64,000 bases of DNA from Aeropyrum camini SY1 = JCM 12091 (GTDB lineage Archaea; Thermoproteota; Thermoprotei_A; Sulfolobales; Acidilobaceae): contig NC_022521.1 in assembly GCF_000591035.1 (NCBI RefSeq), positions 930,001 to 994,000 on the forward strand, written 5' to 3'. The position numbers and the translations under genes are program-made. Each line of letters starts with the position of its first letter. Within the stretch, counting starts at the first letter, position 1. Shown here piece by piece: positions 2,371 to 14,336 of the stretch. Under the pieces are notes generated by a model. The model ran no database searches. It was not told the origin of the DNA and was given only the letters and a program-made list of their open reading frames with translations.

Positions 2371-3318
2371 ATGTTGGGAGACAAGTTTAGGGCTGCCGTG
2401 CTGTACGGCTGGAGAGAGCCTTTCAGGCTTGAGGAGTTCGAGGTCGACCCTCCTGAGGGCTGGGTGCCTGTGGAGGTTAGGAGCGTGGGCATGTGCGGCC
2501 GGGATCTTGTGGTGTGGAAGGGAGGGTTCCCCAACCTCAAACCGCCCCTTGTCCTGGGCCACGAGGTCTTCGGCCTCTATGAGGGTCAGCCCGTCTCCGT
2601 CTACCCCGCCATACCGGACCCGGGCTGCCTGGGGGGCGATTGTCCCCCGGCTATACTGGGGGAGAACCTGCCGGGGGGTTATGCGGAGAGGGTTTACGCC
2701 CCCCGGGAGAACCTCATACCCCTCCCCGACGGGGATTTCAACAAGTACGCCGCCGCAACATGCGGGGTGGCGACTATGATGCACGCCGCAAGCGTCGCCC
2801 GCGTCAGGCCGGGTGAGAGGGTTCTGGTGACGGGTGCGAGCGGCGGGGTGGCGGTCCACGGGATACAGTACCTACAGCTCCTTGGGGCTGAGGTTGTGGC
2901 CTACACTAGGAGCAGGGAGAAGGGCAGGGTGCTCGAGGAGGAGATCGGGGTCGAGACGGTGACAAGCCTAGACTTCTACAGGGAGAGGGGCAGGGTGGAC
3001 GTCGTCATGGAGACAGTCGGGGCGCCCACGATAAACGAGAGCATGAGAGCCCTCCGCCCCCGGGGACGCCTGGTCCTCATAGGCAACATATCAGGAGAGC
3101 CAGTAACCATCAAACGCCCAGCACTACTAGTAATGAGAGAGATAACACTCACAGGATCAGCAGCATTCACCCGGAAAGAATGGGAAGCCGCCATAAAAAC
3201 CATAGGCAAAGGAGGAGTCAAACCATTCTACAAAGCCTACAGCCTAGACCAGATAAACACCGCCCTAAAAGAAGCACTAGAAGGAGGAAGAATAGGAAGA
3301 ATCGTAATAAACCCCTAG
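2371..3318 (+). CDS. Zinc-type alcohol dehydrogenase-like protein (MDR superfamily)
   Basis: Medium-chain dehydrogenase/reductase of 315 residues. The GroES-like N-terminal half carries the catalytic-zinc signatures GMCGRD (~40-45) and GHEVFG (~64-69). The Rossmann half has a nucleotide-binding turn (VTGASGGVAVHG). The four-cysteine structural zinc loop of classical enzymes is missing and the protein is ~30 residues shorter than usual, so it is an MDR paralogue of unknown substrate rather than a typical ADH. ATG 2371 follows GGTGGTTT. Codon choice changes sharply inside the gene: up to about 3070 it uses AGG, GGG and AAG like its neighbours, then AAA, GGA, ATA, GCA and AGA dominate to the stop (see findings). 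Confidence 0.85.
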   Translation: MLGDKFRAAVLYGWREPFRLEEFEVDPPEGWVPVEVRSVGMCGRDLVVWKGGFPNLKPPLVLGHEVFGLYEGQPVSVYPAIPDPGCLGGDCPPAILGENLPGGYAERVYAPRENLIPLPDGDFNKYAAATCGVATMMHAASVARVRPGERVLVTGASGGVAVHGIQYLQLLGAEVVAYTRSREKGRVLEEEIGVETVTSLDFYRERGRVDVVMETVGAPTINESMRALRPRGRLVLIGNISGEPVTIKRPALLVMREITLTGSAAFTRKEWEAAIKTIGKGGVKPFYKAYSLDQINTALKEALEGGRIGRIVINP

Positions 3319-3831
3319 GAAAACGGGGCAACACAGGGAAAAACTACCCATTGACATAGAAAGAAAAAGTCAAAAGCCGAACCAGCCCGACTAATAGACA
3401 CGTTATTTACATCAAAGAACTCCTAGTCTTGCTTGTTTTCAACTTTGGTAAAGCCTGGGTGCATTGCAGCCAAGGCTCCCTCTTAGTCTTGCTTGTTTTC
3501 AACAATGTTGTTTTGTGGGGTTCCTTGTTGTTGTTTGTAGGTTAGGTGTTTTTAAGGTTTTCGGTGGTAGTACGAATTCCTGGTTTCCCCCGTGTTGAGG
3601 GGCCTTGGTTTTTCGTAGAAAAGCTTATAAGCTTGGATGCTTTTATAGGTTAGCCTTTGTTTTCCTGTTTTAGCGGGATAAGGGATGGGGGTTTAGGTGT
3701 ATATGGGTTGCTTAGCTTTCTTAAATTTCCCAATGCTATTCTTGTCCGTTGTCTAGGAGGTGTTGATATAATCAGGGCTTTGGGTGGATGATTCTTGGTA
3801 TGATGCGTTGGTGATGGTGAGGAGGTGTTTG
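3319..3831. other. Gene-free spacer with reversal of strand composition
   Basis: No convincing coding frame lies between the dehydrogenase stop and tRNA-Gly. The left part, up to about 3419, is A-rich and T-poor on the top strand. The right part, from about 3481, is strongly T- and G-rich. By hand count A:T is about 106:30 over 3181-3420 and about 48:128 over 3481-3780. The change coincides with the repeat pair at 3420-3503. Confidence 0.6.
3420..3503. CRISPR. Candidate two-repeat mini CRISPR-like unit (24-base repeats, 36-base spacer)
   Basis: Two copies of a 24-base sequence lie at 3420-3443 and 3480-3503. They differ at one position (CTCCTAG versus CTCTTAG at the left end), share the right end CTTGCTTGTTTTCAAC, and are separated by a unique 36-base spacer, giving an exact 60-base period. 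On the minus strand the repeat begins GTTGAAAACAAGC. Crenarchaeal CRISPRs typically have 24-25 base repeats with 35-40 base spacers. There are only two repeats and no cas genes here, so it could equally be a pair of protein-binding sites or a remnant. Confidence 0.4.
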
Positions 3832-3910
3832 TGGTGCGGCCGCCGGGATTTGAACCCGGGACCACCGGCTTGGGAGGCCGGCGTCCTAGTCCAGGCTAGA
3901 CGACGGCCGC
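3832..3910 (-). tRNA. tRNA-Gly (CCC)
   Basis: The full cloverleaf reads on the minus strand. The acceptor GCGGCCG pairs with CGGCCGC, discriminator A is followed by an encoded CCA (3832-3834), the T arm is CCGGG-TTCAAAT-CCCGG, and the anticodon stem is CCGGC/GCCGG around loop CTCCCAA, so the anticodon is CCC. No intron. A TATA-like element (GATAATAT) lies just upstream on this strand at about 3913-3921. Confidence 0.95.
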
Positions 3911-11794: not shown

Positions 11795-12745
11795 TCACCC
11801 ATCCGAGAAGAATCGGAGTTTATGTTGGAGTGTATCTATTATAATGCCAATGCCTATGAGGATTGGCACGGCAAGGTTCAGGTTGAAGCTCTCCTTAACC
11901 CTTCCCAGCCAGGCCATAGTCTGCACAAGTATTATCACTGAGGCTGTGAGGGCCGTAGAGGCTGTGGCTATAGCTCCGAGGTCGTAGGCTTCTACCCCCA
12001 TAGCGAAGAGGGCTATGGATGCTGCGTGCATGGCTAGGGATGCTGCGAGGGCTCCTTTCTCGCCTATCGCTGCTGGTATGCTCTTCAGCCCGTGGTTCCT
12101 GTCGAAGTCTATGTCCATAATGCTGTATATGGTGTCGAACCCCGCGACCCAGAGTGACACGGCCGCGACGTACAGCCATGGAACGCTTCTGAGGACCTCG
12201 GCCAGGCTTGAGGCCTCGTCTCCCGAGGCCGCCACGGCACCCCCAAAGACCACGCTCCCAAGGACTACGCCGAGGTGGAGGTGAGGTAGGGGGTGAATGC
12301 GTTTAGCGTGGGGGTAGGTAAGGGCTATAGCCAGGACTAGTGGGGAGAGTAGTAGGGCATACTTGTTCAGGAGGGCTGCGGAGGCGAAGTAGATGGCCGA
12401 GCCCAAGGCAACTATAGCCCACGCCTCCCTCATAGTCACCGCACCAACTACAAGCGGCCTCCTCATGGTCCTTGGGTTCAGCCTGTCTATGTCCAGGTCG
12501 GCTATATTATTGTAGGCCATCCCCGCGAGCCTCAGGCCGACGACCGCGGCAGCCATGAGGATGGCGTCGGCCAGGGTGAATGGGTATCCGGATAGTAGGG
12601 CTCCCACGTAGGCGAAGGGGAGGCTGAATATAGTGTGCTCTATCCTCACGAGCCTCATGTAGGCGTGGAGCCTCCCTCCCTTCCTGAGAGCTCCCGCGTC
12701 CCACGAGAGGCTAGTCGAGCCCGTACTCTCCCCACCTGGCCTCAA
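11795..12745 (-). CDS. UbiA-family prenyltransferase
   Basis: Polytopic membrane prenyltransferase with about eight hydrophobic helices. The first Asp-rich motif is NNIADLDIDRLNPRT (about residues 80-94) and the second is YSIMDIDFDRNHGLKS, both binding Mg2+-diphosphate. A preceding TTG (12745) fits a GGTGA motif and makes the gene overlap the end of the UbiD gene by about 35 bases; ATG 12658 would remove about 30 N-terminal residues. The acceptor is not determined by sequence: a hydroxybenzoate or naphthoate ring (quinone synthesis) is likely from the UbiD partner. Confidence 0.85.
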   Translation of the reverse strand: MRPGGESTGSTSLSWDAGALRKGGRLHAYMRLVRIEHTIFSLPFAYVGALLSGYPFTLADAILMAAAVVGLRLAGMAYNNIADLDIDRLNPRTMRRPLVVGAVTMREAWAIVALGSAIYFASAALLNKYALLLSPLVLAIALTYPHAKRIHPLPHLHLGVVLGSVVFGGAVAASGDEASSLAEVLRSVPWLYVAAVSLWVAGFDTIYSIMDIDFDRNHGLKSIPAAIGEKGALAASLAMHAASIALFAMGVEAYDLGAIATASTALTASVIILVQTMAWLGRVKESFNLNLAVPILIGIGIIIDTLQHKLRFFSDG

Positions 12746-14174
12746 CAAGCCTCACCGTCTCCGGATCTGGGGCCACCTCCTCGGGCCACTCCCTCCCCCC
12801 ATACTCCTCGGGGAGCTTCCTGGTGGCGTCTATACCCAGCTTGCTGCCGTACATGGGGGTGGGGGTGGCTGGGTCTAGCTCGTCTGTGTGGCTGTGGGGG
12901 ACGACGAGGACGTCCCTCTGGGGGTCTACGTGGCTTGACACGGCCCATATAACCTGGTTTACATCGTGCACGTCTATGTCGTGGTCGACGACAACTATAA
13001 TCTTCGTCAGGCTAAGCTGGCCGAGGCCCATGAGCGCTAGCAGAGCCTTCTTCCCGTGGCCGGGATACCTCTTCTTTATCGAAACGAAGGCCATCCCCTG
13101 GAACACCCCGTGGGGGGGCAGGTCGATGTCCACAACCTCCGGGAGTAGAGTCTGTATCGCGGGGAGGAATATCCTCTCCGCGAACTTCCCTATAACCACG
13201 TCCTCGAGAGGCGGCTTGCCAGTGACGCTGCCATAGTATATAGGCTCGTCCCTGTGCCACACCCTCTCCAGGTGGAACGTGGGGAAGAGCCTGGAGGGCT
13301 TGTCGTAGTAGCCGAAGTGGTCGCCGTAGGGCCCCTCCTCCCTGAGGTCCTCAAGGTCTATATAACCCTCGAGCACTATCTCCGCGTTAGCAGGCACGTG
13401 GATCCCGTTGGGGAGCCTATACACCGGCAGCCCCTCCCCCCGGACGACGCCAGCGAAGAGGTGCTTATCTATAGGGTAGGGAACGGGCATAGCGCCGGTG
13501 AGTAGCGTGCCTGGGTCGGAGCCTATAACCAGCGCCGCTGGTATCCTATTCTCACCCTTCTCCACAGAATCCTGCTGCGCCTGCATACCCCTCTTGTGTA
13601 TCTGCCAGTGAACCACTCCCTCCCTCTCACCGGCTATCATAACCCTGTAGACACCCATGTTCATGACCCCCCTGACAGGGTCTCTAACGTGGACGAGGGC
13701 ATAGGTGAGGTAGCGCCCCCCATCCTTAGGCCACACCTTGAAGGCGGGTATAGAGTGGAAGCTCGCCTCGCGGCCCTCGAGAACGTTGGCCGTGAACCCC
13801 GCCCTACCCACAGCCCTGGGCATGTACCTACCCAGGCTGAGGACCTCGCCGAGGCTCCTAAGCTTCCCGCCGATACCCAGGGGTGGGGGACCCTTTAGCG
13901 GTTCGAAAAGCCTCTCACCTATGTCCTCTAGCCTCTCAACACCGAGGGCCTCCCTGACGGCTTCGAGGCTGCAGAATATATTGCCAGCAACCCTGAACCC
14001 TCTATGTCCCTTCACCCTTTCGAATAGCACCGCATAGCCTGAGCCCTTGTACATGATCCTCCTAAGAATCTCAGGGATCTCCAGCACCGGGGTGACCTCG
14101 GCCCTGACCCTCCTCAGCATACCCTTGGACTCGAGGAACTCGAGGTAGGATCTAAGGTCGGCTGTGGGCTTCAA
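12711..14174 (-). CDS. UbiD-family prenyl-FMN-dependent decarboxylase
   Basis: A 487-residue UbiD-type (de)carboxylase. Signatures include the cofactor/substrate region HKRGMQAQQDS, ENRIPAALVIGSDPG and the acidic active-site segment EGPYGDHFGYYD. It requires prenylated FMN made by UbiX, which is encoded at 62354-62947. Possible roles are aromatic-acid decarboxylation in menaquinone synthesis, suggested by the adjoining UbiA, or decarboxylation of trans-anhydromevalonate 5-phosphate, an archaeal isoprenoid step established in A. pernix for a UbiD homologue. Sequence alone does not separate these. The start is TTG 14174. Confidence 0.9.
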   Translation of the reverse strand: MKPTADLRSYLEFLESKGMLRRVRAEVTPVLEIPEILRRIMYKGSGYAVLFERVKGHRGFRVAGNIFCSLEAVREALGVERLEDIGERLFEPLKGPPPLGIGGKLRSLGEVLSLGRYMPRAVGRAGFTANVLEGREASFHSIPAFKVWPKDGGRYLTYALVHVRDPVRGVMNMGVYRVMIAGEREGVVHWQIHKRGMQAQQDSVEKGENRIPAALVIGSDPGTLLTGAMPVPYPIDKHLFAGVVRGEGLPVYRLPNGIHVPANAEIVLEGYIDLEDLREEGPYGDHFGYYDKPSRLFPTFHLERVWHRDEPIYYGSVTGKPPLEDVVIGKFAERIFLPAIQTLLPEVVDIDLPPHGVFQGMAFVSIKKRYPGHGKKALLALMGLGQLSLTKIIVVVDHDIDVHDVNQVIWAVSSHVDPQRDVLVVPHSHTDELDPATPTPMYGSKLGIDATRKLPEEYGGREWPEEVAPDPETVRLVEARWGEYGLD

Positions 14175-14336
14175 AACAGGGGCACCCCATCAACCGGGAG
14201 TTGGAGGCCGAGGGTATAAACGGGGGGTATAGGCCTGGGGGCTGGCTGTAGTTCCGCCCATGCATGGTATATCCACGCACCTCCTCCCCTAGGGTAACAC
14301 CATCCATCACAGCTCTAACAGGCCGAGGGCCTTAGG

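What the first reader, a model, noticed from the sequence alone, without database searches (positions are those of the whole stretch)
3420..3503. Two 24-base repeats with an exact 60-base period: orphan mini-CRISPR or paired binding site
The sequence shows two 24-base copies, one mismatch, with a unique 36-base spacer. Crenarchaeal CRISPRs have this repeat and spacer size, and a terminal repeat is often degenerate. There are no cas genes in 64 kb and only two repeats, so an orphan unit, a decaying array, or a non-CRISPR element (initiator or regulator sites) are all open. It would be worth knowing whether the spacer matches a virus.
Basis: partly seen in the sequence, partly recalled or inferred. 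Interest (0 to 1): 0.6.

Follow-up and report, generated by a model that had tools for sequence, protein, structure and literature searches.

The report
Leader-bearing one-spacer orphan CRISPR array
The two repeats are a genuine, very small CRISPR array with a leader and a single stored spacer, in an archaeon where a key gene of the matching (type I-D) CRISPR machinery was not found, so it is a real but mostly ordinary remnant.

Summary
In detail: two 24-base repeats, one mismatch, 36-base spacer; no other close copy in the window or genome. The mini-CRISPR reading is supported, the paired-binding-site reading is not. The repeat occurs in 11 of 60 searched genomes (own included): 6-104 copies in five genomes with type I-D Cas7d, 1-13 in six without. 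In G012 two arrays flank a type I-D operon (cas1, cas3d, cas5d, cas7d, cas10d). The right flank of the window pair matches, at 27 of 36 bases in register, the leader of an array from a Thermodiscus bin; no other position in the window, either strand, does as well. So the array reads right to left, and the variant repeat is leader-distal. The own genome has two cas1 loci, both with type I-A genes and other repeats, and no Cas7d hit (other type I-D genes were not searched genome-wide). The related genome G001 has a decayed repeat at the same place. No credible spacer target was found. Best reading: a minimal orphan array of the type I-D family, left after loss of its effector. More surprising, one related genome without Cas1, Cas10 or Cas7d hits has eight dispersed leader-bearing loci, five with one spacer.

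The parts
3420..3443 (-). leader-distal (terminal) CRISPR repeat, one difference (C at 3423) from the other copy
   Evidence: leader side
3444..3479 (-). 36-base spacer, the only one; as RNA it would read 5'-GGAGCCTTGGC... leftward; no credible target found
   Evidence: length within the 28-53 nt seen for 328 spacers of the family (only periods of 41-89 were counted)
3480..3503 (-). leader-proximal CRISPR repeat; the same 24 bases occur in the G022 (Thermodiscus bin) arrays
3504..3539 (-). leader, repeat-proximal G/T-rich block, 27 of 36 identical in register to the leader of a Thermodiscus-bin array (L060)
3549..3563 (-). candidate TATA box (CCTTAAAAA) with A-rich BRE-like stretch (GAAAAC), pointing into the array; inferred promoter
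   Evidence: sequence; similar element in related flanks; not tested experimentally
3571..3617 (.). short inverted repeat TACGAA (3571-3576) / TTCGTA (3612-3617); the left arm overlaps the GTACGA block of G018, G022 and G034 leaders
3618..3631 (+). outer leader element GAAAAGCTTATAAG, like an archaeal TATA/BRE pointing away from the array; similar elements occur in related leaders
   Evidence: weak profile match only (E 0.93)
2371..3318 (+). left neighbour: alcohol dehydrogenase-like ORF (name recalled, from no call), syntenic with G001 (91% identity)
3832..3910 (-). right neighbour: tRNA-Gly(CCC), syntenic with G001

Best explanation
This is a minimal, stand-alone CRISPR array (leader - repeat - one spacer - repeat) of the repeat family that serves type I-D CRISPR-Cas in related archaea. 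Shown: the repeat family, a leader match that fixes the reading direction (right to left, minus strand), the association of the family with type I-D cas genes in relatives, no Cas7d hit in this genome, and a decayed repeat at the same place in the related genome G001. Inferred: an ancestor of the genus carried an array of this family here; the effector was lost; the array shrank to one spacer, probably by recombination between repeats; in G001 it decayed to a single degenerate repeat. If still transcribed from its leader it would give one crRNA-like RNA. Whether any remaining Cas protein (the genome has two loci with type I-A genes) processes or uses it is unknown; I think it is most likely inactive or nearly so.
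For: Repeat within 3 mismatches in 11 of 60 genomes, own included, with no hit of the reversed control pattern. Cas7d in 6 of 60; 5 of these 6 carry the repeat, against 6 of 54 without Cas7d (Fisher p 4.6e-4, not corrected for relatedness). Copies per genome: 104, 85, 63, 46 and 6 with Cas7d; 13, 7, 5, 2, 2 and 1 without. In G012 arrays flank cas1, cas3d, cas5d, cas7d, cas10d; in G018 and G034 cas1 and cas7d lie within about 8 kb of an array. Leader: 27 of 36 identities in register with L060, 26 with L101; 0 of 5000 dinucleotide shuffles reach 27 (best 26); no other position on either strand of the window does; the other flank scores 12. G001: 18 of 24 at the syntenic site, reached by 2 of 2000 simulated stretches; local alignment runs from the intergenic stretch into the repeat (0 of 2000 simulations as good). 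Both own cas1 loci carry type I-A genes and nearby repeats of other sequence; no hit of the Cas10 model PF22335.
Against: If this were an old neutral relic its repeats and leader should have decayed as in G001, yet both repeats are intact and the leader is recognisable; so loss was recent, or the array came recently, or it is still in use. L060 and L101 come from one Thermodiscus bin, and the other 22 leaders compared match the window at only 9-19 of 36. Profile HMMs from related leaders did not find the window leader at significant E-values. The order of events rests on one related genome with a weak relic. Cas7d was the only type I-D gene searched genome-wide. G019 has Cas7d without this repeat, and G042 has the repeat with type I-A and III-B genes and no Cas7d hit.
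Confidence: 0.7

Rival explanations
1. An active or conditionally active array used in trans: the resident type I-A proteins, or a Cas protein not detected here, process the single crRNA and use it for defence or for regulating a gene.
For: Repeats and leader are well preserved although the same site is decayed in G001. The genome has two cas loci. In Sulfolobales, virus-borne arrays of one or two spacers with leaders and no cas genes are proposed to use host Cas proteins (PMC6858448, passages read).
Against: The repeats beside the two own cas1 genes are quite different, and processing is usually repeat-specific (recalled). The 24 handle-side bases of the spacer have no match within 3 mismatches in the own genome or 196 relatives other than the array itself. 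No hit of the Cas10 model PF22335 in the genome.
Confidence: 0.17
2. The array came in with a virus or other mobile element integrated near the tRNA-Gly gene and is a leftover of that element.
For: It lies in a 0.5 kb stretch beside a tRNA gene where G001 has about 2.9 kb with other ORFs. Virus-borne mini-arrays with leaders are known in Sulfolobales.
Against: Neighbours on both sides are syntenic with G001. A decayed repeat sits at the same place there, which suggests vertical descent. A scan of viral contigs for the repeat gave two contigs of one phage type with a single near-repeat inside a coding region, no array. Mobile genes in the G001 stretch were not searched by profile.
Confidence: 0.08
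3. A pair of regulator or initiator binding sites that only looks like a CRISPR.
For: Only two copies in the genome and an exact 60-base period.
Against: The same 24-mer, with small variations, forms arrays of tens of copies in relatives, some beside cas genes, and the flank matches a leader of theirs in register.
Confidence: 0.02

Closest known systems
Type I-D-associated CRISPR arrays of related archaea (G012, G018, G022, G026, G034 here)
   Same: 24-base repeat family, spacer length, orientation; leader close to that of G022, with motif order shared with G018, G022 and G034
   Different: Here one spacer instead of many, and no Cas7d hit in the genome
[quoted passage not shown] 2020, as cited in PMC8616872; passages of that review read; the paper itself not held)
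   Same: CRISPR repeats without a detected cognate cas locus
   Different: Only two repeats; cognate system named by comparison with relatives
Virus-borne mini-CRISPR arrays of SPV1/SPV2 (PMC6858448, passages including parts of the abstract read)
   Same: One or two spacers, leader present, no adjacent cas genes
   Different: Chromosomal, syntenic with a relative, and its cognate cas system not detected in the host
CRISPR-repeat-derived regulatory RNAs such as CreA/CreR (recalled, not looked up)
   Same: Single repeat-flanked guide-like unit
   Different: Those sit next to cas genes with partial target matches (recalled); here the own cas1 loci are about 200 and 600 kb away and no target match was found

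Membership tests
CRISPR array | direct repeats of a repeat family known from multi-spacer arrays | tested here: met
CRISPR array | unique spacer of the family's size | tested here: met
   36 nt; 328 family spacers from 12 loci were 28-53 nt; its handle-side 24 bases occur once in 197 genomes at up to 3 mismatches
CRISPR array | leader adjoining one end | tested here: met
   supporting motif order (pattern designed after seeing the window); profile HMMs not significant
CRISPR array | more than two repeats | tested here: not met
   two repeats only; hence 'mini-array'
Type I-D CRISPR-Cas system (complete) | cas7d/cas10d effector genes in the genome | tested here: not met
   Cas7d: no candidate in G000; Cas10d, Cas3d, Cas5d tried only on the window and eight own-genome loci
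Type I-D CRISPR-Cas system (complete) | repeat of the type found next to I-D cas genes | tested here: met
Virus-borne mini-CRISPR array | located in a virus, provirus or plasmid | tested here: not met
   syntenic chromosomal neighbours
Virus-borne mini-CRISPR array | spacer targets a related virus | tested here: inconclusive
   no credible match; coverage of viruses of this host was not checked
Functional crRNA source | transcribed and processed RNA | not testable with these tools
   needs small-RNA sequencing

The most novel reading that the evidence does not exclude
One-spacer, leader-bearing CRISPR units are a maintained state in some Cas-poor genomes of this order: each is a stand-alone small-RNA gene that uses the CRISPR leader as promoter and perhaps non-cognate or non-Cas proteins, rather than a dying array. 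The window unit would be one case. G043, with eight dispersed leader-bearing loci (five with exactly two repeats) and no hit for Cas1, Cas10 (PF22335) or Cas7d, would be the clearest.
Probability: 0.12. Interest if true: 0.65.

Novelty: new member of a known kind. Interest (0 to 1): 0.36.

Why it matters
It shows how a two-repeat, otherwise doubtful CRISPR can be confirmed from the leader and repeat family of relatives, and it points to loss of type I-D immunity in this lineage. The wider pattern, leader-bearing one-spacer arrays in genomes where the cognate Cas gene is not found, would if general ask whether such units still do something.

Tried and rejected
Spacer target. Phages: 4 records, 17-base matches, E 5. 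Plasmids: 6 records, E 1-4. An 18-base exact scan of viral contigs gave one contig; the best match there is 23 of 36 bases, taken as chance. Four of the five spacer frames that read open by eye, back-translated, gave 0 viral contigs each; the fifth was not scanned. A 20-base exact scan of genome contigs gave 0, an 18-base scan of viral contigs 0, and a 24-base search with up to 3 mismatches hit 1 of 197 genomes, the array itself.

Leader tests. Three profile HMMs built from related leaders found nothing in the window (two) or only E 0.93 (one). The in-register comparison used 24 right-hand flanks taken as leaders: those from 41 listed loci with at least 2 repeats, at least 120 bases of flank and a distinct sequence; several come from one genome, and the 36-base length was chosen after seeing the BLAST match. 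Two leaders of one bin match at 27 and 26, the other 22 at 9-19. The motif pattern was made after seeing the window; it hits the window, three G018 flanks, one G034 and one G022 flank, and none in the other loci given (G004, G008, G012, G026, G042, G043, G049, G001 and own cas loci); 0 hits in 30 simulated windows, one strand. A crude global alignment of the G001 intergenic stretch was no better than shuffled; a local one was (1 of 2000 simulations as good). The window leader has no counterpart in the G001 insert. In G012 the flank taken as leader of one array overlaps the end of the cas1 ORF.

Other. Rfam gave only the tRNA above its gathering score. Viral contigs with the repeat pattern proved to be a phage coding region. 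ORFs tried near arrays of G004 (2), G026 (4), G034 (4), a second G012 contig (2) and G043 (4 by PADLOC, 2 others by Pfam) had no Cas family hit. One search also left a G018 ORF in the cas10d position without any Pfam hit.

Full report
WHAT IS THERE. The pair is real: 3420-3443 and 3480-3503, 23 of 24 identical, 60-base period. Two matches in the window against none in 100 shuffles; in the own genome (1,595,994 bases, one contig) the 19-base core has no other copy except one 3-mismatch site.

THE REPEAT BELONGS TO A CRISPR FAMILY. With up to 3 mismatches the repeat occurs in 11 of 60 genomes, own included, with no hit to the reversed control pattern in any of the 60. Four genomes hold 46-104 copies, a fifth six; single arrays reach 41 (L057) to 49 (L120) repeats. 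A scan of named genomes with an exact degenerate pattern gives 29 stretches, among them Acidilobaceae, Thermodiscus, Fervidicoccus, Pyrodictiaceae, Thermofilum and Desulfurococcales records. Spacers in 12 loci of the family are 28-53 nt (328 counted; only periods of 41-89 were admitted), most often 34; the window's 36 is typical.

THE COGNATE SYSTEM IS TYPE I-D IN SEVERAL RELATIVES. Cas7d rings in 6 of 60 genomes. Five of those 6 carry the repeat, 6 of the other 54 do (Fisher p 4.6e-4, relatedness not corrected). In G012 arrays at L091:15-2563 and about 12301-14199 flank cas1, an unnamed ORF, cas3d, cas5d, cas7d, a small ORF and cas10d. In G018 cas1, cas3d and cas7d follow an array; in G034 cas1 and cas7d lie within 8 kb of one. 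Against exclusivity: G019 has Cas7d but not this repeat, and G042 has the repeat with type I-A and III-B genes and no Cas7d hit. In G022 and G026 the Cas7d hit is on another contig than the arrays held, so adjacency was not seen there.

THE LEADER. In G018 the right-hand flanks of three arrays are alike while the left-hand ones differ; the same holds for most G043 loci. So I took right-hand flanks as leaders, 24 of them. The 36 bases right of the window pair match one (L060, whose contig length and repeat positions are those of a Thermodiscus bin) at 27 positions and another of the same bin (L101) at 26, in the same register. No other place in the window on either strand reaches 27; the best of 5000 shuffles is 26; the opposite flank gives 12; the other 22 leaders give 9-19. 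Farther out the window shows, in the order seen in G018, G022 and G034 leaders, a T/A-rich element, GTACGA, and an A-rich TATA-like element (pattern made after inspection). Profile HMMs of related leaders did not find it. So the array reads right to left, and the one repeat difference, at 3423, lies in the leader-distal copy.

THE OWN GENOME. Two cas1 genes lie at 315 and 736 kb. Both loci carry type I-A genes (Cas7a in both; Cas8a in one; Cas3 and Cas5a in the other), and the repeats next to them are others, GCATATCCCTAAAGGGAATAGAAAG and GAATCTTCGCGATAGAATTGCGAG. No Cas7d and no Cas10 by PF22335. That Cas10 model also missed G012, which has a Cas10d, so it does not test Cas10d. Type I-D proteins of G012 and G018 hit only the two Cas1 regions, in the window and eight own-genome loci held.

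SYNTENY. The neighbours, a dehydrogenase-like ORF and tRNA-Gly, are the same in G001, but G001 has about 2.9 kb between them instead of 0.5 kb, with ORFs that look like a nuclease-domain protein and a toxin-antitoxin pair (read by eye from the translations; not searched). At the collinear place G001 has TTCTCGGTATTGCTTGTTTTCTTC, 18 of 24 to the family pattern; 2 of 2000 simulated stretches do as well, and a local alignment passes from the intergenic stretch into it (0 of 2000 simulations as good). A crude global alignment of the intergenic stretch was no better than shuffled. I read this as the same array in decay.

THE SPACER. No credible target in the collections searched. Whether viruses of this host are well represented there was not checked, so this says little.

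HOW IT WORKS. Most likely it once made crRNA for a type I-D effector that the genome no longer shows, and is now a minimal remnant; promoter and crRNA are inferred. The good state of both repeats and the leader, against decay in G001, leaves room for recent loss or remaining use.

A WIDER PATTERN. Genomes without Cas7d hits carry small arrays of the family. G043 (99% complete, 8 contigs) has no hit for Cas1, Cas10 (PF22335) or Cas7d, yet has eight leader-bearing loci: five with two repeats (two of these with a first repeat of 3 or 4 mismatches), one with four, two with one (one of them degenerate). Their leaders are alike, but two (L056, L145) lack the repeat-proximal part and one (L141, minus strand) is more diverged; the spacers printed differ. 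One further repeat has no such leader, and one 3-mismatch site was not examined. G042 has one two-repeat array and one single repeat with nearly the same leader, plus other single repeats. Other cas families were not searched in G043, so 'without cas' is not established.

LITERATURE. Only the open library was searched. Papers holding both 'Aeropyrum camini' and 'CRISPR': 1, listing only, not relevant. 'Aeropyrum' with 'type I-D', 'CRISPR' and 'leader': none. 'Desulfurococcales' with 'CRISPR', 'leader', 'I-D': none. 'Fervidicoccus fontis' with 'CRISPR' and 'spacers': 2, listing only. Listings were seen; of these, passages were read in PMC8616872, PMC6858448 and PMC10769869 (which mentions a type I-A array in A. 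pernix). Orphan and mini-arrays as such are known. The A. camini genome paper (recalled) was not seen.

VERDICT. A genuine mini-array, new member of a known kind, moderate interest.

Noticed in passing
L055, L056, L141-L145 (G043): Eight dispersed loci with similar CRISPR leaders and one to four repeats (five with exactly two) in a 99% complete genome without a hit for Cas1, Cas10 (PF22335) or Cas7d; spacers differ.
   Followed up: partly
L055, L142-L147; window 3571-3631: Several leaders of this family contain an inverted repeat followed by a TATA/BRE-like element that points away from the array (e.g. TTAGCATTC..GAATGCTAGCCGAAAAACTTATAAA in G043; seen by eye); function unknown.
   Followed up: partly
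L053:7698-8824 (G018) and L060:7605-9335 (G022): In two genera a lone repeat, an ORF without Pfam match and then the array lie in the same order, with similar sequence next to the lone repeat, as if a gene sat inside the array's distal end.
   Followed up: partly
L050:5200-7930 (G001): About 2.7 kb with a nuclease-like ORF and what reads like a toxin-antitoxin pair, at the site where the window has the mini-array.
   Followed up: no
L058:6307-9823 and L059:4611-5624: mad3/mad8-like proteins (PADLOC) on contigs that carry arrays of this repeat family in G034 and G012.
   Followed up: no
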